Below, piece by piece: positions 1,648-32,509 of a DNA stretch of 35,615 nt (position 1 is the first letter of the stretch; each line of letters starts with the position of its first letter). Source of the DNA: a virus; IMG/VR virus record IMGVR_UViG_3300032675_000077, positions 1 through 35,615 of that record. One strand, written 5' to 3'. A program made the translations under genes and the position numbers. Below the pieces are notes generated by a model. That model was not told where the DNA came from and did no database searches. It saw only the letters and a program-made list of their open reading frames with translations.

Positions 1648-2334
1648 CTATTCATCAAAGAGATTTTCGTTCCATTCACGGCATTTTGTTCCGTGCCATC
1701 TTTTGTAGTTTGGGTAAGATATCACCTTACCACAATGCTCACATGGTATTTTTTCAGAATTCATTTTCAAAAAACTATGAGTTCCATTTTCTACCATTCT
1801 ACTTGCTGTTTCCTTTGAAACTTCTGATTTGGTTCTACCATCTTTTCTCGGCCTGTTAGATAATTCTCTTTGCTTTTCTGGGTCCAAAAACGGATGAGTT
1901 CCTTGCTCCATTACTTTTTTTGTTGCTACACTCATTCTCTCTTTAGCCCCTGGTCGTTTACTCGGATTATCGTTTTTCATCCTCTCAGACAAGTTCTTCT
2001 TAAATTCATCAGACCTAGGTACGTGATTTATGTTTAATCCGTTTTTGTTGATGTAATCAAACCCTCCAGTTCCGCCGCGTCTTACATTGTAAGTATCATC
2101 TCTTAATAAGAAATCCTCATTTACAATTTCTATTTCTTGACTAATCATATCTTCACGAGTATTAAAATATTCAAGAACAGTTTTAACAAACTGTTCTTTT
2201 CCGTATTTTTCATACGCTCTGTTTATGACAGTCCCGCTTCCCATATATCCATCATTTATATCTTTTGTTTGATGGACGCCTACGTAAATTTTATTGTTTA
2301 CGGTATTTTTAATTTCATACAAGTAATAGAACAT
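1648..2334 (-). CDS. GIY-YIG homing endonuclease, free-standing (228 aa)
   Basis: The N-terminal 95 residues are a GIY-YIG nuclease domain: YYLYEI ... KIYVGVHQT, then YMGSG, a Glu-containing helix (ISQEIEIVNEDF) and an Asn (TYNVRRGG) near the end. The middle is lysine-rich linker with NUMOD-like segments (SDEFKKNLSERMKNDNPSKR). The C-terminus has a zinc-finger-like CEHCGK ... HGTKC. This layout is usual for Seg-type mobile endonucleases of T4-like phages, which nick DNA near their own insertion site and spread by recombination. It has its own late promoter (2353-2360) and an AAGGAG Shine-Dalgarno. Confidence 0.88.
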   Translation of the reverse strand: MFYYLYEIKNTVNNKIYVGVHQTKDINDGYMGSGTVINRAYEKYGKEQFVKTVLEYFNTREDMISQEIEIVNEDFLLRDDTYNVRRGGTGGFDYINKNGLNINHVPRSDEFKKNLSERMKNDNPSKRPGAKERMSVATKKVMEQGTHPFLDPEKQRELSNRPRKDGRTKSEVSKETASRMVENGTHSFLKMNSEKIPCEHCGKVISYPNYKRWHGTKCREWNENLFDE

Positions 2335-2396: not shown

Positions 2397-2900
2397 TTAT
2401 GCAAAAAGGTCTTCGTCCCAACATCTATGCCCCTCTCTAAAAGCCATATTTGATTGTGTCTCTCGAACTTCAACGCGGAAACACCAAATTCGATCTGATT
2501 CACTCTTACCAAGATATTCAGGTATGTAAATGCCATTTACATACTTGTATAGCATGTCGGCTATACATTCACATCCCATAGCAGGTAGCACTGTTAAATC
2601 TAAGATTCCATCTTTCTCAAGTTGTCGAAATTTTTCAATGTCTAGGTCATCAGCAGCAATAAGTGTGCGATGATCAAACTGGTCTTTTAAAATTTGTTTA
2701 AGTTCCTTAAGGCCGCCGTAATCACAAACCCATCCTCTTTTGTCTAATTCATTTGCGCCAAAATAGAATTTCATACTAAGTGAGTAACCATGGTTTTTTG
2801 AACAATGGGTATCGGCCTTCCATTGTTTGTAGGCGCATGGAAATTCGTCAATATACTCTTTTGTTGATGTAAACTTATATGCTACCGGCTGATATGTCAT
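2397..2900 (-). CDS. queD: QueD-like 6-carboxytetrahydropterin synthase (167 aa)
   Basis: The protein belongs to the 6-pyruvoyltetrahydropterin synthase fold. FPCAYKQWKADTHCSKNHGY carries the zinc and catalytic region (Cys within THC, His in NHGY). WVCDYGGLKELK matches the conserved 'G.v.DF..LK' strand, DHRTLIAADD is the DH motif, and FRVEVRET ends with the conserved V-x-E-T. QueD turns dihydroneopterin triphosphate, made by FolE, into carboxytetrahydropterin, the QueE substrate. The length is longer than E. coli QueD but normal for the alphaproteobacterial type, from family knowledge. It overlaps the upstream endonuclease gene by four bases (ATGA). Confidence 0.85.
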   Translation of the reverse strand: MTYQPVAYKFTSTKEYIDEFPCAYKQWKADTHCSKNHGYSLSMKFYFGANELDKRGWVCDYGGLKELKQILKDQFDHRTLIAADDLDIEKFRQLEKDGILDLTVLPAMGCECIADMLYKYVNGIYIPEYLGKSESDRIWCFRVEVRETQSNMAFREGHRCWDEDLFA

Positions 2901-3862
2901 GTTAGCTGTTCCTTTATGTAGTTAATAAATTGACTTATTATGCTTGATTTTTGTTGTTCTGCAAAATCAGATCGTAGTACAAAGACTTTGAATCCGCGGT
3001 CTATGGCCATTTTTAATTTTTCTTGATCTTTCCGATATTTTTGACTGTATGTTAGCCCAGTTATTGCCATTAGTTCAGATTTTAATTCGTTTGCTTGTTC
3101 TTCAGTTGGATGCCATCTTAACCCATCATATTCTAATATCGCCTTTGCTTCCTTGACACAAAAATCATAAAAGTTGACCCCTTCTTTAGAACTTAAAAAC
3201 CATTCACACTTTGTCTTATCTTCAGAATCTCTATAGTATATAGTATAATCTAGTAACCAAGGATTATCGAAGATAATATTTTTAATTAAAGTTTCTGCTT
3301 CCTTAGAGTAACCGATAGATTTGAAGGTGTTTTGAAGAAATTCGGCATATTTTATATGTCCGTCTTCTCCGTATTTTTCTAAATACAGTTCTAATTTTGT
3401 CTTGCTGCTATATCGTTCTTTTTTTGTAGCGCTAGATTTAGCATTAATAGCTGCTCGTTTTTCTATTTGTTCTGCCTCTGATAAATCATTCCAGTATTTA
3501 GATAAGCTTTCCTTTCTCTTCTGTGACATATTTGTCACCCCAATTTCACCTTTTTGTGCTCTAACTAGTGCTACAGTATTTTTTTTAGCAATAGTCTCTT
3601 GCCACTTTTTCTTACCAAGTTCTTCTCCCCAACGTTTAATCATATTTTCTTCTGATTGACGCGACTTATTAACATGTTCATTAAATCGATCTATCCCATC
3701 TTCTGGATATTTCCAGATAAACCATTCTTTAGTAAATCGTGTGTATGGCTGCGAATCATAAGTTTTTTTGCGGCTTGCTAATAGTTTACGAACTCCATTA
3801 TATCGTTTAGTTCCAGACGCTTCACCGTATTTGTCTATGTAATCCTGCAACGTCATTGGCAT
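2897..3862 (-). CDS. Vsr-like (EDxHD-type) homing endonuclease next to queD (321 aa)
   Basis: The C-terminal domain has the Vsr/PD-(D/E)XK-like pattern of phage homing endonucleases: AILEYDGLRWH at about residues 241-251, then KDQEKLKMAIDRGFKVFVLR at 278-297. The N-terminal two thirds contain three divergent copies of a K-Y/W-G-x4-G-x2-(K)-Y/W repeat (about 10-26, 76-92, 161-177), also found in the endonuclease inside the polymerase gene. I choose the ATG at 3862: GGAG lies 7 bases upstream of it but only one base from the ATG at 3868. It has a late-type promoter (3885-3892), and its stop overlaps the queD start. Confidence 0.8.
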   Translation of the reverse strand: MPMTLQDYIDKYGEASGTKRYNGVRKLLASRKKTYDSQPYTRFTKEWFIWKYPEDGIDRFNEHVNKSRQSEENMIKRWGEELGKKKWQETIAKKNTVALVRAQKGEIGVTNMSQKRKESLSKYWNDLSEAEQIEKRAAINAKSSATKKERYSSKTKLELYLEKYGEDGHIKYAEFLQNTFKSIGYSKEAETLIKNIIFDNPWLLDYTIYYRDSEDKTKCEWFLSSKEGVNFYDFCVKEAKAILEYDGLRWHPTEEQANELKSELMAITGLTYSQKYRKDQEKLKMAIDRGFKVFVLRSDFAEQQKSSIISQFINYIKEQLT

Positions 3863-3884
3863 ATCCATGCTCCTTATGTTGTAT

Positions 3885-9450: not shown

Positions 9451-9480
9451 TATGACGATGGACATAACCAAGAGAATGTG

Positions 9481-10491
9481 ATGACAACCCCATATACATA
9501 TTTGATCAAATGCATACCAACTGGAGAAGTATACTATGGCGTAAGGTACGCCCGTGGATGCCATCCGTCTGAATTATGGGTCAAGTATTTTACAAGCTCT
9601 GTGCAGATAGCCAAAAGAATAGAATTATTGGGTAAGGATTCATTTGATTACAAAGTTCGAAAAATATTTAAATCAGGTAAAGATGCGAGAATGTGGGAAG
9701 ATAAAGTTCTACGCCGGATGAAAGTTATAGATAATCCAAAATGGTTGAATAACAGCTATGGAGTTACGTTTGATTCAAGACAACACCCATTGCTTGGAAG
9801 GAAGCTTGTGTATGTATATTCTTTTAACCAATATAAATGGATGGAGACTGCATTTGCGAAAGTAATAGTATCTTTAGGTCTTGGAGAACTAAAGGGACCC
9901 AAAAAACCAAAAGGACACGGACAAAAAGTTTCAGCAGCTCTAAAAGGCAAGAAAAAATCTTCAAAGCATATCAACAATATAATTGAATCATTTAATGCTA
10001 ATACTAATAATAGAGGTTGGATTGTATATACAAACGGCATTTCTAATATAAGACTACAACCTAGTGAATTACCTCCCACCGGATTTCATCAAGGTAGTAT
10101 GTTAAAAGGAAAGTCAACACCAAACAAAAACGCCGGTAAATCTTATGAAGAGATATATGGCATAGAGAAATCCAACCAAATCAAATTAAAAAGATCAACA
10201 CAACTAAAACAAAATAATCCCAGCAAGAAAATGAAAGGAAAAACATACGAAGAGCTGTATGATAGCGAAACAGTTTGTAGATTGAAAGATGCAAGGAGTA
10301 AATCTGGAAAGAAAAATAGCAAGATTTATGAGATTTATAAAGACGGTCTGAAGGTGTTTACAGGAGGCAGAGTCGATACTGCGTTGTTCTTATTTACAAC
10401 GTATGGTGGATCAAAAGCCAACAACTTATACAACCCTAGTTGGCTTTCAAAACACAATATCAGGGTTGATATTCGGTATACGAACCGTTAA
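9481..10491 (+). CDS. GIY-YIG homing endonuclease on the plus strand (336 aa)
   Basis: The N-terminus reads TPYTYLIKCIPTGEVYYGVR, a GIY-YIG variant (YTY ... YYG) with the following Arg. WEDKVLRRMKV holds the metal-binding Glu and NPKWLNNSYG a late Asn. The long C-terminal part is very basic with repeated NUMOD-like pieces: GKSTPNKNAGKSYEEIYG and later MKGKTYEELYDSE. I prefer the ATG at 9481 over the GTG at 9478 because GAGA lies 7 bases upstream. It is opposite in direction to its neighbours and its 3' end overlaps the next minus-strand gene tail to tail by 32 bases. This orientation is common for free-standing mobile endonuclease genes. Confidence 0.82.
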   Translation: MTTPYTYLIKCIPTGEVYYGVRYARGCHPSELWVKYFTSSVQIAKRIELLGKDSFDYKVRKIFKSGKDARMWEDKVLRRMKVIDNPKWLNNSYGVTFDSRQHPLLGRKLVYVYSFNQYKWMETAFAKVIVSLGLGELKGPKKPKGHGQKVSAALKGKKKSSKHINNIIESFNANTNNRGWIVYTNGISNIRLQPSELPPTGFHQGSMLKGKSTPNKNAGKSYEEIYGIEKSNQIKLKRSTQLKQNNPSKKMKGKTYEELYDSETVCRLKDARSKSGKKNSKIYEIYKDGLKVFTGGRVDTALFLFTTYGGSKANNLYNPSWLSKHNIRVDIRYTNR

Positions 10492-13821: not shown

Positions 13822-14829
13822 CTAAAATGAAAATAGTTCATTAAATGTGTTATTATCTTTGTTTGATTCTAAATCCCATTTAAGAACTCCTAAGAGATTC
13901 TGAACCTTTTTGTCTATAATTGCAGCTTCCATTGCATCATCATCAAATGGTAATTCTTTGAACCATTGAGGTAGTGTCATTTCATCAACAGGATATGCAA
14001 CGCTAGTCAATCCGCTTGGATTAGATTTTAATTTGCAAACAATAACTTTGAACCCATCTTGTATAGGCATACTATAGTTATCGTTGTATATCTTTTTCAA
14101 TCTATTCCAATTGATACTTGCTAGAACATGTCCTGGGATTGATTTTTTAGGCGCACTGGTCTTTAAGTCTGGTTTTTGTCGAGCATTTATTATTCCTTCA
14201 TAATACGTTATCTTGTTTGCTCTTTTTGGCGAACCTTTAAGCCATGCAGGCCAACTGCGGAATTCTTTACGGAATTCTAAAATTTTATTTTGAATTTCAG
14301 ATTCTTTACTGCCAGTAAGTACATCAATTAACAAATCACTTAAAAAATCTTGAACAATCTTTGGTGTATCGCTGCGTTTAAGATCAAGACCCATAGCCTT
14401 GATCTCACCTTTTTTGCCGTTGATATCTTTTCTTTTGCCTTCTTTGTCATAAATCAAAACTGCATAGCGTTTTTTTGTAATAAACAGACCTTGAATTGCA
14501 CATAGTTCTCTAGCTGCCTTAATAATAGATCCATTTTGCGGAGGACAATTAAATGCTTTATTCATAAATTCTGAAAAACTAGCATTAGTTATGTCTGCTA
14601 TCTTATCGTACAAATCAGTTACATTTTCTTTTGACCAGTCAAAATCTTTAAATTCAGGCAAATCCTTCATTACTGGATAAGCTGAAAAGTAGGCGGAATC
14701 GGTGTTATGTAAAAGTATATCATTACCAAAAAAGAAAGGATCACCATTCTTTATAGAAATATCGTAAACATATTCATCTATCTCTCCGAGACATTCAATT
14801 GATTTTACTTTGGTGTAGTCTGCATCCAT
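13822..14829 (-). CDS. 43: DNA polymerase B, C-terminal part preceded by a split-intein C-fragment (335 aa)
   Basis: Residues 1-42 are an intein C-terminal fragment: block F YVYDISIKNGDPFFFGN and block G DILLHN, ending His-Asn. Residue 43 starts the extein TDSAYFSAYP, the second half of polymerase motif C (YGD/TDS). The rest is the palm and thumb of a family B enzyme, with KKRYAVLIYD (K-K-x-Y) and KAMGLDLKRSDTP, and ends FNELFSF. Joined to the N-part at 15784-18015 the extein is about 920 residues, close to T4 gp43. The start codon overlaps the end of the endonuclease gene and has AAGGA upstream. Trans-splicing between the two proteins would be needed for a working polymerase. Confidence 0.92.
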   Translation of the reverse strand: MDADYTKVKSIECLGEIDEYVYDISIKNGDPFFFGNDILLHNTDSAYFSAYPVMKDLPEFKDFDWSKENVTDLYDKIADITNASFSEFMNKAFNCPPQNGSIIKAARELCAIQGLFITKKRYAVLIYDKEGKRKDINGKKGEIKAMGLDLKRSDTPKIVQDFLSDLLIDVLTGSKESEIQNKILEFRKEFRSWPAWLKGSPKRANKITYYEGIINARQKPDLKTSAPKKSIPGHVLASINWNRLKKIYNDNYSMPIQDGFKVIVCKLKSNPSGLTSVAYPVDEMTLPQWFKELPFDDDAMEAAIIDKKVQNLLGVLKWDLESNKDNNTFNELFSF

Positions 14830-15746
14830 TCTACTATTTCCTTAATAATCATTTCTTTATTTGTTAGATAATCTGATTCCCATACCACAAATGTTCTAAA
14901 TCCTGCGGCATGCGCTATATCAAGCTTAATTCTATCTTTTTCCCAAATGTCGCTAGCAACCGTGCCTCTGATTTGGTCAGTGGCGCTGTAAATTTTTGGA
15001 TTTGCATGCCAATAATCTCCATTAAATTCTATTATACAATCATTGTGTTTTATATCATATACTACATATGAATTTTTTATATGATTCCATTTACCAAAAG
15101 GTGACGTCAGGTTTGTGTTATCAAGTTTACCTAAAGTTTTCTCTAATTCTTTTACAAATTCTAATTCTAGAGTACTTGAATATGATGATCGGTATCTAGC
15201 AGCGATTTTAGCGACTGCCTCATCAATAGTGATGTCATACTTAATTGCTACTAATTCCGCTTTGTGTGGTGCACTCTTTTTTTGACACAGATCATTCCAA
15301 TATTGTAATCCATATGTGTTAACAATATATTCTTTGCTTTTTGTAAATTTTTGACGGTCGCAATATTCTTCCCATTTACGTAATCCATCTTCAACCCCAT
15401 GCTTTTTTACCATGTTTTCTACAGTAATTGCTCTCGACACATTATACTGATCAAATTCATCAGCAGTCCATCCATACTTTTCTTGTTTATATTCAAAGGT
15501 GTTAGATTTTGCTTGTTTCTGTTTATATGCTTCCCACTTAATTCTTCCGTCTTTCTCGCCGTATTTGTTAATCAATGTAACTAATGTTACAGCCGTACGT
15601 TTGGCTAGTTCGTCATCAACCACTTTAGCAAATGGATATGCATTCATGTATTCTTCACCGTTTTTAAATCTTCCTGTACAGTTATACTTAAAATGAGTCC
15701 ATTGTAGTCTAGATGATTCAAATCCGCATTCAAGACATTTTGGCAT
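14805..15746 (-). CDS. Vsr-like homing endonuclease inside the split polymerase locus (313 aa)
   Basis: The N-terminus is a zinc-finger-like CLECGFESSRLQWTHFKYNC. Then come copies of the KYG-x3-G-x2-KWE-x-Y repeat (LINKYGEKDGRIKWEAY, VKKHGVEDGLRKWEEY, and a shorter NTYGLQYWNDL). The C-terminal nuclease part holds CIIEFNGDYWHANP and IWEKDRIKLDIAHAAGF with RTFVVWESDY, the EDxHD/Vsr-like motifs of the I-Bth0305I-type family. It lies exactly between the two polymerase fragments, is transcribed in the same direction, and has its own GATAAATA promoter and AGGAGT Shine-Dalgarno. It presumably cuts intein-free polymerase genes at the YGDTDS codons (inference). Confidence 0.85.
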   Translation of the reverse strand: MPKCLECGFESSRLQWTHFKYNCTGRFKNGEEYMNAYPFAKVVDDELAKRTAVTLVTLINKYGEKDGRIKWEAYKQKQAKSNTFEYKQEKYGWTADEFDQYNVSRAITVENMVKKHGVEDGLRKWEEYCDRQKFTKSKEYIVNTYGLQYWNDLCQKKSAPHKAELVAIKYDITIDEAVAKIAARYRSSYSSTLELEFVKELEKTLGKLDNTNLTSPFGKWNHIKNSYVVYDIKHNDCIIEFNGDYWHANPKIYSATDQIRGTVASDIWEKDRIKLDIAHAAGFRTFVVWESDYLTNKEMIIKEIVEWMQTTPK

Positions 15747-15773
15747 ATGCTGATACTCCTGTCCCCATATGCC

Positions 15774-15781
15774 TATTTATC
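15774..15781 (-). promoter_or_regulatory. Late promoter-like GATAAATA for the polymerase-locus endonuclease
   Basis: GATAAATA lies in the 37-base gap between the polymerase N-part stop and the endonuclease ATG, 27 bases before that ATG and followed by AGGAG. It would uncouple endonuclease and polymerase C-part expression from the N-part. Confidence 0.6.
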
Positions 15782-15783
15782 TA

Positions 15784-18015
15784 TTATACTACAAATGTAA
15801 TGATGTTGTCGCCTTCTAATATTTCAGTTGGTTTAACTTCAACAAGATATCCATCCCTATCAACCATAAGACTGTGATCTTCGGTCACTGTTACCTGTTT
15901 GCCGTTTTCAGTAGTAATACGATATAATTTCTTTTTAGTCTTGTGTCTCATTACGTACTCGATTGGATTAACTAACGGTACCATTTCATACGAATTAAAT
16001 CCAACCACCTTTGCTTGCGACCATAATCCATATTCTTTACCGTTAGAGATACAGTGTTCAAAACATTCGTTGTAAAGTTGCTCAATAGTTATTTCTCCGG
16101 AGTCTGTCTTGATTAATGTATCTCCAGTAACACTGTCACCATAAATTACTGAAATTCCAAGGTGATTATAGTCACCTGCAATAATTTCATTAATTTTCGA
16201 TGCCATATGTTTCACAATACAACGGCCACTTAATGTTGTACTTTGCGCCACACGAGGATCATAAAATCTGCTGCCAGGATTTCCAATAGCGCCATATAAA
16301 CTGTTTAGCAAAATCTTTTTGATCAGTTGTCGTTGATCATAAAATTCAGCTAGTGTTTTGTATTCTTTCTTCTTCTCTGTATCAGTTTCTTCATCCGCCA
16401 TTTTAGCATATTTGCGCATTTCTGATTGTAGCTCTTTACGCTCTGCATACCAACGTGCTAATAGCCCAGGAATTATTCCTGGTTTATCATAACTAAAAAT
16501 GGTACCATTTGCAGATAATGTAAATTTTTTCCCACTCTGAAATACAAGATCAAAAAGTTCTACTGCAGAAACTGTTGATGTAGACCCATCTTCAAAATCA
16601 ACTGTAATAGGTGTTAATTCTTTATTGATTACTTGATTGTATTCAAGAGTGCCAAACATACCGCCCCACGCATCTGCAAAACTTTTCTTTTCTACTTTAA
16701 TACGTTTTGCAATTAGTTTGTCAGTACTTTCTGGTCTAATATGTCCAACCACAGTTTCTGGACTCATATTCAGTGCTCTAATAGCAGAAGGATATAGACT
16801 GTTTATATCAACTCCGCCGATCCACTCATGCATGCCTTCTTTAGGGTCTGCGACATACGCACCGACAACCCCAGATATGTTGTCTTCACTGTCTTCATCG
16901 TCAATATCATTATCACGAACTGGGGAATTGTCCCTTTTGCGATTTGGAACAACGAAGCCTAAATCCCAGGCTTCGTTAACAATTGCTTGGTCAATTAAAC
17001 CTACAGCTCCAAGCGTAGTCCCTAATAATACACAATTTTCATGTGCTAGGTTGTTACTTAAATCAATGAATTTATTTTTGGCATCAATCTTAACAAGAAG
17101 CATAACGTCTTGTCTGTTATATTCAATGAATTTTTCAAAATCTTCGTTATATAACTTATCAAGACTTCCTTCATAATGAATTTTTTTGTCGCCTACATCA
17201 TATTCGCCCACAAAGTCCAATCTATAACTGTGCATTTCATGATAGGTGTGCTTGCGATACAATTGGAGATAATCCATATGAATTCTACCAACTAGATCAT
17301 ATGTTATAGTTGTACGACCATATGCTTCATATTCTCGTCTTTTTGGAAATTTATTCCACAAACATAAACGACGTGTTTCGTCTTTTCCTAATGTTTGCAC
17401 AATACGATTGTAAATGTACGGTATGTCAAATCCTTCTGAATTCCAACCGCTTAGAATATCTACATCTTCGATTAATCCAAGAAAAATTTCAAGAAGCTCT
17501 TTTTCGTTTTCACAAAGTATTGTATCTTCAAATTTATTAGTGATATTTTGAGCAGTTTCTGTATCAAGACCTTTGGGCTTAATAACCATTGTAAAATTAC
17601 GTTCAAGCCACGAAAGGTAAACTGAAATAGCAGTTATAGGTGAGAATGCATCGGCAGGACTTGAAAATCCTCTTAGTGGATCAAAATCCACTTCAATATC
17701 AAAAAATCCAACATGTAATTTTGGTGTTGATGCAGCTTTGTAATTGTCATAGAGACATCTAAAAATTGGATTAATATCTGTTTCATGCAGTGATAAACGA
17801 GGTAATAAACTGGTTTCTCTATTGAATTCTTTTATCTTGTTTGTGACAAATTTTTCGCACAGTTTACCGTAAATATTTGGATACTTGCCTCGCTGTCCAG
17901 GCCAATAGATTACATATTTTGTATTATATGTGTTATAAACCCTGCGTCCTTGTTTATCTCGTTCAACAACTAGAATTTGATTCTTTTCACGTTCTAAATA
18001 TGCATCAATATACAT
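15784..18015 (-). CDS. 43: DNA polymerase B, N-terminal part followed by a split-intein N-fragment (743 aa)
   Basis: Residues 1-627 are a T4-type family B polymerase. Proofreading motifs are FFDIEVD (Asp106, Glu108), WNSEGFD (191-197) and YNRQD (299-303). Polymerase motif A is GGVDINSLYPS (401-410) and motif B is KKILLNSLYGAIG (566-577). The extein stops at VIYGD (Asp627). Residues 628-743 are an intein N-fragment starting SVTGDTLIKT, with block B TEDH (711-714), and ending IITFVV. Both catalytic Asp groups of motif C are thus divided between two genes. No start alternative is needed: ATG at 18015 has AAGGA upstream. The gene order clamp-polymerase is T4-like. Confidence 0.95.
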   Translation of the reverse strand: MYIDAYLEREKNQILVVERDKQGRRVYNTYNTKYVIYWPGQRGKYPNIYGKLCEKFVTNKIKEFNRETSLLPRLSLHETDINPIFRCLYDNYKAASTPKLHVGFFDIEVDFDPLRGFSSPADAFSPITAISVYLSWLERNFTMVIKPKGLDTETAQNITNKFEDTILCENEKELLEIFLGLIEDVDILSGWNSEGFDIPYIYNRIVQTLGKDETRRLCLWNKFPKRREYEAYGRTTITYDLVGRIHMDYLQLYRKHTYHEMHSYRLDFVGEYDVGDKKIHYEGSLDKLYNEDFEKFIEYNRQDVMLLVKIDAKNKFIDLSNNLAHENCVLLGTTLGAVGLIDQAIVNEAWDLGFVVPNRKRDNSPVRDNDIDDEDSEDNISGVVGAYVADPKEGMHEWIGGVDINSLYPSAIRALNMSPETVVGHIRPESTDKLIAKRIKVEKKSFADAWGGMFGTLEYNQVINKELTPITVDFEDGSTSTVSAVELFDLVFQSGKKFTLSANGTIFSYDKPGIIPGLLARWYAERKELQSEMRKYAKMADEETDTEKKKEYKTLAEFYDQRQLIKKILLNSLYGAIGNPGSRFYDPRVAQSTTLSGRCIVKHMASKINEIIAGDYNHLGISVIYGDSVTGDTLIKTDSGEITIEQLYNECFEHCISNGKEYGLWSQAKVVGFNSYEMVPLVNPIEYVMRHKTKKKLYRITTENGKQVTVTEDHSLMVDRDGYLVEVKPTEILEGDNIITFVV

Positions 18016-29423: not shown

Positions 29424-29648
29424 TTAAAAAACATCCTTCTCTGTCCACTTAAAATAGGCCATTGTAAAATCCCAATCGTTTTCGGCCAGAAGGTGTAAAA
29501 ATCGTTGAACTTCGCGATCTATTTGTGCCATAAAAGCAAGTTCATTATCGGTTAGAGATTCAAAGTAATTCTGGTCGTAAATCGAAGATAGCGCATCTTG
29601 CTGATCTAGTAAAGAGAATTTGCCAACAATATCCGGTATACTGTGCAT
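29424..29648 (-). CDS. Small acidic hypothetical protein (74 aa)
   Basis: The ATG at 29648 overlaps the ligase stop as TAATG and has GGAGAG upstream. The protein (DQQDALSSIYDQNYFESLTD, then EVQRFLHLLAENDWDFTMAY) is helical and acidic. It shares 'NDWD' and its size with the coiled-coil protein at 5443, but no real homology is visible. No family is recognised. Confidence 0.6.
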   Translation of the reverse strand: MHSIPDIVGKFSLLDQQDALSSIYDQNYFESLTDNELAFMAQIDREVQRFLHLLAENDWDFTMAYFKWTEKDVF

Positions 29649-30592
29649 TAAATTTTCTCTCCAGGGTTCCAACCTCGGAATTGCATGAAAACAGGAAATC
29701 TGATGCTGTAAATATCATTGCTATCTTGGCTAAGCGTCAATGCATCACCTTTAATTTCGCCAATTCTACCTTTGACATTGTGACGGTTTTGCCAAATTGC
29801 GTCGCGTAACTCGTCACTATAACCACTACCTACACTGGTTTGAATTTTTTTACCATTATCCTCTCCAGCAAACACACAAGCACCCATGGTATTTTCATAC
29901 TTGCTACCAGGTGTTCCAGGAACTACCTCAATTAATTCCAAATCAACTGTAATAAACGGTTTCATTTTGAGCCAGGCGTCTGAACGCTTGGTTTTATACG
30001 AGGCTGTAGGGTCTTTTATCATAATGCCTTCGTAGCCAGCTTCAACAGTTTCTTTGTTAAATTCAGCAAAGGTTTTTTGGCCTGCAGGTGTGTCTAGATC
30101 TACTGCAAGTTTAGGAACAACATAAATTGATCCATATGCAATCTGCGCTAGTAATGGTTGAAATTGCACAAGTGCAGTGTGCCTGTCAATTTGTGACAGC
30201 TTACATTCTCCTGCTAGGAAATCGTCAAGAGGCAGGCAGTCAAACAGTGCTAGCTTTGCATCAGTTGTATCAACATTTTCCTTGCGATTCAACTGTTTCA
30301 TAAGAGCCTGAAAATTTCTACTTACCATTTCTCCATCAAAAACCATGCTAGTAGTAATTACAGACAGCAGTTCTGCTAGTTTATTTGCAATATGTGAAAA
30401 ATTTTCATTGAGTCGTCCATCACGACTATATTGAGTAACTGTATTCTTTGTTTTATCAAGAATACTTATAATTCGACAATTATGAACTAGAACATTATTA
30501 GCAAAAAAATTACTAACATTTTCAACTTCTAAATCATAACGATCAAACTGCTCAGTAATTTCTTCGATCGCCTTAATTGTAACAAACGTCAT
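29648..30592 (-). CDS. 30: ATP-dependent DNA ligase, C-terminal part preceded by a split-intein C-fragment (314 aa)
   Basis: Residues 1-38 are an intein C-fragment: DRYDLEVENVSNFFANN (block F), then VLVHN (block G, ending His-Asn). The extein begins at Cys39-Arg40 (CRIISILDK). Joined to KLDG of the N-part this rebuilds ligase motif I, K-x-D-G-x-R. Downstream are motif III FDGEMVS, motif IIIa KLALFDCLP, motif IV YEGIMIKDP and motif V WLKMKPF, then the OB domain (GRIGEIKGDAL). The joined extein is about 465 residues, close to T4 gp30. GAGGAAAATATT gives the Shine-Dalgarno. Activity requires protein trans-splicing with the product of 31553-32437. Confidence 0.93.
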   Translation of the reverse strand: MTFVTIKAIEEITEQFDRYDLEVENVSNFFANNVLVHNCRIISILDKTKNTVTQYSRDGRLNENFSHIANKLAELLSVITTSMVFDGEMVSRNFQALMKQLNRKENVDTTDAKLALFDCLPLDDFLAGECKLSQIDRHTALVQFQPLLAQIAYGSIYVVPKLAVDLDTPAGQKTFAEFNKETVEAGYEGIMIKDPTASYKTKRSDAWLKMKPFITVDLELIEVVPGTPGSKYENTMGACVFAGEDNGKKIQTSVGSGYSDELRDAIWQNRHNVKGRIGEIKGDALTLSQDSNDIYSIRFPVFMQFRGWNPGEKI

Positions 30593-30602
30593 AATATTTT
30601 CC

Positions 30603-31487
30603 TCAATACGAGTTGGTTAGGTTGACGGTATTGTGTATTAATTCTTTAACTTTGTCAAAGCTTTTTTTAATGTCAATTTCCCATATCGTGATAACTGTCA
30701 CATTAAAGGATTCTATATGCTCCTGTCGCAACTTATCATTTTCCCAAATTTCTTGGGCAGTAGTAGGACCAATATGTAATTGAATAATATCACTTGGATA
30801 ATATACTCTCGGGTCAGCATGCCAATAGGTACCAAATATTTCTATCACAATTCTATATTGTTGCATCCATATATCAACTATCGGGGAATATATTCTGTTA
30901 TTTTTACTACGCTTTTTAGGAAATAAATTGGGAATTTCGTTTTCGTGTACAAAACCTTGATCAAGTAACCAGTTTGACAACTTTTGATGCGGTTTTGTTA
31001 ACATATGCTTGTCTGTAGAACGAGGTAGGTACCGAGCGTTAGAAACACCATATTTTTCCAAAAGAGTTGTAGTTATTTTGTCTTTTATTTCTGCCCTTTG
31101 AAAAGGATTGTCAACCCCATGCCTATCTTGATTGGTTGATACCTTTTTTTCTTTTATTGACGTTGATTTAGAAACATTATCAACTCCGTATCTTTGTTCT
31201 ACAGTTGATTTATATTGTTCTCGTGTTGATAATAAGTTTGCAGATTCTTTAATACTCATAGTGGTAATTCCATTTATTCTGCACCAATCTCGTAAATGTG
31301 CTCCACTAATTTTAATTCCAGCCCATTCTTCGCTTGTTTGTTCCATTCTATAGATTGGCATTTTTTCAACTATCAACATTTGTCTTAACAGGCTGTCAAA
31401 AGGCTCTAATCGTGCCTGACTTTTCATAGTCCTACAATAATGACTAGGACTAATATTTGTTTTTTTACAAAATTTACAATACGACAT
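30603..31487 (-). CDS. Vsr-like homing endonuclease inside the split ligase locus (294 aa)
   Basis: The N-terminus has CKFCKKTNISPSHYC, a probable zinc knuckle. The middle carries three R/K-Y/H-G-V-x-N units (QRYGVDNVSKS, DRHGVDNPFQR and EKYGVSNARYL), the repeat known from phage endonucleases of this type. The C-terminal nuclease domain shows VIEIFGTYWHADP and IWENDKLRQEHIE with VTVITIWEIDI, the EDxHD/Vsr-like core also in the polymerase-locus enzyme. I start at the ATG at 31487 (AGG upstream) rather than a TTG at 31502. It has its own GATAAATA. It probably cuts intein-free ligase genes at the KLDGxR codons (inference). Confidence 0.83.
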   Translation of the reverse strand: MSYCKFCKKTNISPSHYCRTMKSQARLEPFDSLLRQMLIVEKMPIYRMEQTSEEWAGIKISGAHLRDWCRINGITTMSIKESANLLSTREQYKSTVEQRYGVDNVSKSTSIKEKKVSTNQDRHGVDNPFQRAEIKDKITTTLLEKYGVSNARYLPRSTDKHMLTKPHQKLSNWLLDQGFVHENEIPNLFPKKRSKNNRIYSPIVDIWMQQYRIVIEIFGTYWHADPRVYYPSDIIQLHIGPTTAQEIWENDKLRQEHIESFNVTVITIWEIDIKKSFDKVKELIHNTVNLTNSY

Positions 31488-31515
31488 AGAAATACCTGCC
31501 AAGTTTATTGTACCG

Positions 31516-31523
31516 TATTTATC
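31516..31523 (-). promoter_or_regulatory. Late promoter-like GATAAATA for the ligase-locus endonuclease
   Basis: 28 bases before the endonuclease ATG, in the 65-base gap after the ligase N-part. It is the same octamer variant and nearly the same spacing as at the polymerase locus (27 bases). Confidence 0.6.
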
Positions 31524-31552
31524 ACAGACTATAAACTTGATGGTGTATTACT

Positions 31553-32437
31553 TTATTTTTCCAGCAATTTATCACCAACTTTTAGTAAATCAACCCTTCG
31601 CCAACATTTAATATTTGGTAACCATACCAAATGATTACCAGTTAATGGCGGCAACAGTTTACCATTTTCTAATGTAATGCGATACCATTTAATTGTGTCA
31701 TCATTAATATCCTTGGCATTTTTGGCCCAGTTTGTTATAGTATTAAACTCAATTTTACCAGTTAAGGTATTAAAGGATTTAATTTTACCAGATATTTTAT
31801 TATCAACAACTTCAGCGATGGATACTTTTTGCCCATCATCAAATTCAATTTCCCATTGTGCCGACAAACATCCGTCAAGTTTGATATCTAACAGTTTATT
31901 ACCTGTCATCTTCTTTGGGTGATCGTCACCATTTTTAGCAAGCTGACAAGAAAAAACAGGAATTAGATAGGGTTTAGCAGAATCACCGTTGCGTTCAAGA
32001 ACTTTGTTAATAGTGGTTTCTGAAACACCGCATTTGAGATCTTTAAGTAGAATACGCCTGTAAAAATAATTCCAATCTTTTACCGATGCAGCATTTGCTG
32101 CGTTTCTAAGTGTATCGCGAGCTGCGTTACCAGTTAGAGTCCTTGTTTCAAGCTTCTGTGAGATATCTAGAAAATTTTGAAAAGTGAATTGAGTGATAAA
32201 TTGAGGATCATCCTCACCTTCAATGAGTGGAACCTTTTTTACTCCATATGTTCTAAGTGCATCAAGTGCCATGAGTGAGCCCTGAAAGAACTCAGTTATT
32301 TTGAGATCCCATGCCTCTTGAATGATGCGTTCTTTTTCTATGCGACTATTTGTTACCTCTAAGGCTTGAATTACATCAGCAGCTGATTTCAATTGAGTTA
32401 CTCCGATTTTGCTTAGTGATATTATATGATTTATCAT
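31553..32437 (-). CDS. 30: ATP-dependent DNA ligase, N-terminal part followed by a split-intein N-fragment (294 aa)
   Basis: Residues 1-189 are the N-terminal domain and start of the adenylation domain of a gp30-type ligase: LRNAANAASVKDWNYFYRRI, LKDLKCGVSETTINKVL and LLDIKLDG, with catalytic Lys186. From Cys190 the sequence becomes an intein N-fragment: CLSAQWEIEFDDGQKVSIAE, WYRITLENGK and block B TGNH (266-269), ending KVGDKLLEK. The nucleophile lysine therefore lies four residues from the splice point, so unspliced protein cannot be a ligase. I start at the ATG at 32437, 9 bases inside a TTG-started frame. Confidence 0.92.
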   Translation of the reverse strand: MINHIISLSKIGVTQLKSAADVIQALEVTNSRIEKERIIQEAWDLKITEFFQGSLMALDALRTYGVKKVPLIEGEDDPQFITQFTFQNFLDISQKLETRTLTGNAARDTLRNAANAASVKDWNYFYRRILLKDLKCGVSETTINKVLERNGDSAKPYLIPVFSCQLAKNGDDHPKKMTGNKLLDIKLDGCLSAQWEIEFDDGQKVSIAEVVDNKISGKIKSFNTLTGKIEFNTITNWAKNAKDINDDTIKWYRITLENGKLLPPLTGNHLVWLPNIKCWRRVDLLKVGDKLLEK

Positions 32438-32509
32438 ATGTGTCAACCTAATTCCCTTGGTATTGCGGTTGGTTGGGTGAACAGTCCATATCTCCCTAGT
32501 AAAAAATTA

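What the first reader, a model, noticed from the sequence alone, without database searches (positions are those of the whole stretch)
13822..18015. DNA polymerase split between the catalytic residues of motif C by a second split intein
The N-gene ends its extein at VIYGD and continues SVTGDTLI (intein with Ser1, block B TEDH). The C-gene begins with an intein tail ending LLHN, followed by TDSAYF. Splicing recreates YGDTDS. Total intein is about 158 residues with no endonuclease domain; a free-standing Vsr-like endonuclease gene sits between the halves. The same architecture as the ligase locus, with a different nucleophile pair (Ser1/Thr+1 against Cys1/Cys+1), shows two independent split inteins rather than a duplication.
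Basis: partly seen in the sequence, partly recalled or inferred. Interest (0 to 1): 0.93.

Follow-up and report, generated by a model that had tools for sequence, protein, structure and literature searches.

The report
Split-intein polymerase cassette that moves
A phage DNA polymerase gene is cut in two at its active site by a self-splicing protein insert that carries its own DNA-cutting enzyme gene; the arrangement is already known from other phages, but here the whole insert can be seen to have jumped recently between different phages.

Summary
A family B DNA polymerase is encoded in two genes. The N-gene ends ...VIYGD followed by a 116-aa N-intein. The C-gene starts with a 42-aa C-intein ending LLHN, followed by TDSAYF. 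A 313-aa Vsr-like endonuclease gene lies between them. All splicing residues are present, and 77 related viral loci have an uninterrupted polymerase at this site.

It is not a new kind of thing. The site YGD|TDS is the classic pol-c intein site (archaea, Mimivirus, split in Nanoarchaeum). The same split-intein/VSR layout is annotated in Aeromonas phage Aes123 and a similar one is published for Pseudomonas phage MIJ3. The best solved match is the Aes123 PolB1 split intein (9HTH, E 3.8e-22). Those isolates carry it two residues later (DTD|S, Ser+1).

What this work adds: all 80 closest endonuclease relatives sit in the same polB split intein. Window and contig L005 share a 1,431-bp cassette with 4 mismatches between flanks about 75% identical, so the split intein and endonuclease gene moved as one unit; other phage pairs and the ligase cassette show the same. 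Homologous inteins occupy two sites 6 bp apart. Four complete phage genomes with this layout show no second family B polymerase.

Trans-splicing and DNA cutting are inferred, not shown.

The parts
16135..18015 (-). N-extein of family B DNA polymerase (exonuclease, palm, fingers, up to ...VIYGD of motif C)
   Evidence: PF03104, PF00136, phrog_262; junction by translation
15787..16134 (-). N-intein, 116 aa: Ser1, block B TxxH (TEDH), His in MRHK (block X-like)
   Evidence: PF14890, TIGR01445; best PDB match 9HTH, Aes123 PolB1 intein, E 3.8e-22 for N+C joined
15756..15760 (-). AGGAG, ribosome-binding-site-like, before the endonuclease ATG
   Evidence: sequence inspection only
14805..15746 (-). 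Free-standing Vsr-like homing endonuclease, 313 aa (motif IIEFNGDYWHANP)
   Evidence: phrog_22677 1.8e-52; AlphaFold2 pLDDT 91, Foldseek top hits 3r3p I-Bth0305I and 1cw0/1vsr Vsr, prob 0.97 / 0.97 / 0.89; invariant E194, D231, E240, N242, G243, H247 in an alignment of 48 sequences
14839..14843 (-). AAGGA, ribosome-binding-site-like, before the C-gene ATG
   Evidence: sequence inspection only
14704..14829 (-). C-intein, 42 aa: YVYDISIKNGDPFFFGNDILLHN, penultimate His, terminal Asn
   Evidence: PF14890 2.3e-5, TIGR01443 15.4 bits
13825..14703 (-). C-extein of DNA polymerase, begins TDSAYF (second half of motif C, Thr+1)
   Evidence: phrog_1918 4.5e-52, phrog_262 5.9e-46; PF00136 2e-4
31871..32446 (-). 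DNA ligase N-extein ending ...DIKLDG (second, separate cassette)
   Evidence: phrog_114 1.3e-22; junction
31556..31870 (-). Ligase N-intein, 105 aa, Cys1
   Evidence: TIGR01445 15.2 bits, weak
30603..31502 (-). Ligase-locus endonuclease, 299 aa, Vsr-like
   Evidence: TIGR00632 vsr 0.0097 and phrog_3339 homing endonuclease 2.9e-11
30479..30592 (-). Ligase C-intein, 38 aa, ending HN
   Evidence: TIGR01443 24.9 bits, above cut-off
29651..30478 (-). Ligase C-extein, begins CRIISI (Cys+1)
   Evidence: PF01068 4e-16

Best explanation
The locus is a mobile split-intein cassette at the pol-c site of a phage family B DNA polymerase. The two polymerase genes are translated separately. The 116-aa and 42-aa intein pieces find each other, fold into one Hint domain and trans-splice through Ser1, the terminal Asn and Thr+1, leaving an uninterrupted 920-aa polymerase with YGDTDS restored. 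The Vsr-like endonuclease encoded between them most likely cuts intein-free polB alleles at or near motif C, so the whole 1.43-kb cassette is copied in by recombination. Shown: anatomy, conserved splicing residues, empty alleles, and a sequence footprint of transfer of the cassette as a unit. Inferred: the splicing reaction, the cutting, and that this endonuclease (not the recombination machinery alone) drives the transfer.
For: Anatomy. Intein profiles. The nearest solved relative, 9HTH, is the Aes123 PolB1 intein; versions derived from it trans-splice in vitro (PMC13014065). Across 53 distinct related inteins Ser1, TxxH and terminal Asn are in 53/53, the penultimate His in 51/53, Thr+1 in 45/45 at this site. 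77 related viral loci have a contiguous, intein-free polymerase at this site. All 80 best endonuclease relatives lie inside a polB split intein. Window against L005: cassette 1,431 bp with 4 mismatches; identity ends 9 nt upstream and 23 nt downstream of the insertion site and falls to about 75%. Separate pairs L155/L160 (4 mismatches in 1,489 bp; flanks 80/78%) and L108/L115 (4 in 1,439 bp; 84/83%) show the same. Presence/absence of the cassette changes at least 16 times on the polymerase tree, 13 forced by well-supported branches. The endonuclease gene is under purifying selection: dN 0.051, dS 0.28. No second family B polymerase in four complete phage genomes with this layout.
Against: No protein or RNA data. 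Split polymerases without inteins (Aeromonas phage 25 gp43A/43B) assemble without splicing and are active (PMC2988022), so splicing is not the only way to a working enzyme. The endonuclease's fold match is suggestive only (E 0.07), and its target site is unknown.
Confidence: 0.9

Rival explanations
1. The two polymerase halves assemble non-covalently, as gp43A/43B of Aeromonas phage 25 do, and the intein pieces are inactive relics.
For: Intein-free split polymerases work this way (PMC2988022). In L005 and L011 the same gene is broken again in the fingers next to an endonuclease-like ORF with no intein seen, so this polymerase family seems to tolerate some breaks.
Against: The break separates the two catalytic Asp residues of motif C, and splicing residues are nearly invariant in 53 distinct inteins. 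In SCTP-2 a homologous intein at the same site is contiguous, so the polymerase there must splice in cis or be dead.
Confidence: 0.05
2. The cassette is vertically inherited and now fixed; the endonuclease is decaying or does something else, and near-identity between contigs reflects general recombination between co-occurring phages rather than homing.
For: Split inteins can become fixed. L072 has only a remnant of the endonuclease. Some flanks also look mosaic (L108/L113: upstream 99%, downstream 81%).
Against: High-identity tracts coincide with the cassette ends in separate phage pairs and also at the ligase locus (98-100% cassette against 69-77% flanks). Endonuclease dN/dS is about 0.2 or below in the two pairs where it is measurable. 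Occupied and empty alleles are interleaved on the polymerase tree.
Confidence: 0.05

Closest known systems
Aes123 PolB1 split intein locus (Aeromonas phage Aes123, JN377899; intein structure 9HTH)
   Same: PolB split by a typically split intein (about 120 + 39 aa), Ser1, Asp-1, free-standing 'putative VSR endonuclease' gene between the halves; intein homologous; endonuclease about 35% identical.
   Different: Inserted two residues later (YIDTD|S, Ser+1). Aes123 polymerase has a further break (gp43A/43B1/43B2).
Split PolB of Pseudomonas jumbo phages MIJ3/PA5oct (PMC6892783)
   Same: Split PolB, split intein and free-standing endonuclease, published in 2019.
   Different: Site YGDTD|S; endonuclease of another family (phrog_559/3339, called HNH).
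pol-c inteins (archaeal PolB, Mimivirus R322, Nanoarchaeum equitans NEQ068/NEQ528)
   Same: Same site YGD|TDS (position III), with Ser1/Asn/Thr+1 in Mimivirus; N. equitans is also split there (PMC549080).
   Different: The Mimivirus intein carries an internal LAGLIDADG domain; N. equitans halves are separate genes; no free-standing Vsr gene appeared in the passages of that paper that I read.
Fractured genes (Dassa et al. 2009, metagenomic)
   Same: Split intein with a free-standing endonuclease gene between the halves (recalled; the paper is not held).
   Different: Could not be compared directly; whether a pol-c allele was among its loci is unknown to me.

Membership tests
Split intein (Hint, class 1) | N- and C-terminal splicing blocks on two separate ORFs | tested here: met
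   PF14890, TIGR01445; C-half matches are under the curated cut-offs but in place
Split intein (Hint, class 1) | Nucleophile at 1, TxxH in block B, terminal HN, nucleophile at +1 | tested here: met
   Ser1, TEDH, LLHN, Thr+1; conserved in relatives
Split intein (Hint, class 1) | Trans-splices | not testable with these tools
   needs protein work; reported only for the homologue Aes123 PolB1 and its derivatives (PMC13014065)
pol-c intein allele | Insertion at YGD|TDS with Ser1/Asn/Thr+1 | tested here: met
   definition from PMC549080
pol-c intein allele | Groups with archaeal/Mimivirus pol-c inteins by sequence | not tested
   best PDB hit is the phage Aes123 intein rather than an archaeal polymerase intein, which hints at a separate phage lineage
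Aes123 PolB1-type phage split inteins | Sequence homology of the intein | tested here: met
   E 3.8e-22 to 9HTH over 156 of 158 residues
Aes123 PolB1-type phage split inteins | Site DTD|S with Ser+1 | tested here: not met
   window is D|TDS with Thr+1; isolates Aes123, PTm1, VPALA, MIJ3, Lak are DTD|S
Fractured gene (split intein + free-standing endonuclease) | Endonuclease ORF between the two half-genes, same orientation | tested here: met
   80/80 relatives
Vsr / EDxHD endonuclease fold | Vsr-like catalytic domain | tested here: inconclusive
   Foldseek top hits I-Bth0305I and Vsr at probability 0.97 but E 0.07-0.2; conserved E, D, H; homologues deposited as VSR endonuclease
Homing endonuclease | Cassette spreads into empty alleles | tested here: met
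   sequence footprint of transfer in separate pairs
Homing endonuclease | Cuts the empty site, not the occupied one | not testable with these tools
   needs purified enzyme

The most novel reading that the evidence does not exclude
The phage PolB split intein and its Vsr-like endonuclease have moved more than once between two insertion sites six base pairs apart in motif C (YGD|TDS and YGDTD|S), switching the +1 nucleophile between Thr and Ser. The DT-DS near-repeat of the extein may make either site splice-competent: an intein changing its site within one active-site motif.
Probability: 0.35. Interest if true: 0.6.

Novelty: new member of a known kind. Interest (0 to 1): 0.45.

Why it matters
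Split inteins with a detached endonuclease pose a question: can an element in three separate ORFs still home as one unit? Here the answer can be read from sequence. The 1.43-kb cassette is nearly identical between phages whose flanking polymerase differs by about 25%, with edges at the insertion site, and a second cassette in the ligase gene shows the same. The set also gives dozens of natural Ser1/Thr+1 split inteins for protein engineering, and a natural series (empty, split with endonuclease, endonuclease remnant, contiguous mini-intein, two adjacent sites) for testing how split inteins arise and decay.

Tried and rejected
Assembly or frameshift artefact: rejected, two other contigs carry the same arrangement at 99.97-99.99%. 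Group I intron in the window: Rfam finds none. HNH endonuclease reading: profiles and fold point to Vsr/I-Bth0305I instead; sequence search of PDB with the endonuclease gave only chance hits. Apparent 100% intein identity of L072 with L117, L150 and L159 was a gap artefact and is discarded. One-origin test of the YGDTD|S site: the best tree splits it in two, but the AU test does not reject one clade (p 0.095), so multiple site switches are not claimed. Dassa et al. 2009 could not be read. The 49.8% upstream figure for W/L005 is caused by an intron and a break in L005; the direct alignment gives about 65-85% per 60-bp bin near the cassette. The conserved-residue count missed the block X His in L112 and L145; in L145 this is only because the pattern was too narrow (RHS), L112 was not re-read.

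Full report
CHECK OF THE OBSERVATION. The N-gene (15784-18015) reads as a family B polymerase up to VIYGD and then as an intein (PF00136 4e-24, PF03104 6e-21, PF14890 2e-9; TIGR01445 53 bits). The C-gene (13822-14829) starts with a 42-aa C-intein and continues TDSAYF and the rest of the polymerase (phrog_1918 4.5e-52). Joining the exteins gives 920 aa with YGDTDS. The endonuclease ORF overlaps the C-gene start by 25 nt. Two other contigs, L003 and L004, are 99.97-99.99% identical over 12-13 kb.

EMPTY AND OCCUPIED ALLELES. A scan with the C-gene gave 80 viral loci. Most have an uninterrupted polymerase at this site, for example L009 and L010 at about 71-75% C-extein identity. In a polymerase tree of 139 rows, occupied and empty alleles are interleaved: at least 16 changes of state, 13 of them forced by well-supported branches.

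THE CASSETTE MOVES AS A UNIT. A scan with the endonuclease gave 80 loci, and all 80 lie between halves of a polB split intein. Against contig L005 the window's cassette (N-intein, endonuclease, C-intein; 1,431 bp) has 4 mismatches. Outside it, only 9 nt upstream and 23 nt downstream of the junctions are still identical, and beyond that identity is about 65-85% per 60-bp bin. L155/L160 and L108/L115 repeat this pattern. The endonuclease is under purifying selection in pairs where synonymous change is not saturated (L103/L108 dN 0.051, dS 0.28). The ligase cassette of the same window does the same: 98-100% identical to L177-L179 and L181 inside, 69-77% outside, with contigs L182 and L185 lacking the insert. 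These are footprints of homing; the enzyme activity itself was not tested.

TWO SITES SIX BASE PAIRS APART. Of 82 intein-bearing sequences examined (some are near-copies), 69 are at YGD|TDS (Ser1, Thr+1), including the window, Klebsiella phage KP13-7 and Salicola phage SCTP-2; 13 are at YGDTD|S (Ser1, Ser+1), including MIJ3. Further isolates Aes123, PTm1, VPALA and Lak-B5 are also at YGDTD|S. The inteins at both sites are homologous. In the careful tree the YGDTD|S forms fall in two groups, one of them nested with YGD|TDS forms, but a single clade is not rejected (AU p 0.095).

ENDONUCLEASE. No Pfam or NCBIfam family is hit above cut-off; the protein is phrog_22677, 'unknown function'. The AlphaFold model (pLDDT 91, pTM 0.57) matches the I-Bth0305I catalytic domain and E. 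coli Vsr best (probability 0.97, E 0.07). Homologues in Aeromonas and Tenacibaculum phages are deposited as VSR endonucleases. L072 keeps only a remnant of about 79 aa.

INTEIN RESIDUES AND NEED FOR SPLICING. Ser1, TxxH and terminal Asn occur in 53 of 53 distinct inteins, Asp-1 in 53, penultimate His in 51. The complete genomes of MIJ3, KP13-7, PTm1 and VPALA, and four 259-328-kb contigs, have no family B polymerase match outside the split locus. Without splicing or another way of rejoining them, the two motif C aspartates stay on different chains in the window's polymerase.

COMPARISON WITH WHAT IS KNOWN. The site is pol-c ('YGD|TDS', Ser1/Asn/Thr+1), the site of archaeal and Mimivirus inteins and of the split in N. 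equitans (PMC549080). The layout is annotated in Aes123 and a similar one is published for MIJ3 (PMC6892783). Natural PolB split inteins from phages and marine sediments are already used for protein labelling (PMC12707363). The locus is therefore a new member of a known kind. The combination of a pol-c site with a detached Vsr-like gene, the footprints of cassette transfer and the two-site family are what it adds.

Noticed in passing
L005:7173-7387, L006:3386-3600, L007:9622-9836, L011:8117-8335, L091:3179-3395: Relatives carry a group I intron (RF00028, 97-104 bits) in motif B (LLNS|LYGA) of the same polymerase gene; the window does not.
   Followed up: partly
L005:5720-7018; L011:6882-7892 (minus): A further break of polB in the fingers next to an endonuclease-like ORF, no intein seen there: in L005 and L011 the gene is interrupted by this break, a group I intron and the split intein.
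   Followed up: partly
window 2897-3868 (-): A third endonuclease-like ORF (weak phrog_22677 match) abutting a 6-pyruvoyl tetrahydropterin synthase gene; no intein seen beside it.
   Followed up: no
window 29648-32446 (-): The ligase split-intein cassette is 98-100% identical to L177-L179 and L181 while flanks are 69-77%; L182 and L185 lack the insert.
   Followed up: yes
L083:8405-10087: The MIJ3 endonuclease published as HNH contains LDIYVPSKNLAIEYNGLYWHSS, which by eye looks more like a Vsr/EDxHD motif.
   Followed up: no
L085:5864-6352; L119: The SCTP-2 contiguous mini-intein and L119 end in KN instead of HN (no penultimate His).
   Followed up: no
L173:3350-4372: Caulobacter phage Cr30 has a homologue of the endonuclease's C-terminal part (40% over 112 aa) directly upstream of the large terminase gene, i.e. 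outside polB.
   Followed up: no
window 1648-2334 (-), 9478-10491 (+): Two further ORFs that look like GIY-YIG homing endonucleases by eye; the window seems rich in mobile endonuclease genes.
   Followed up: no
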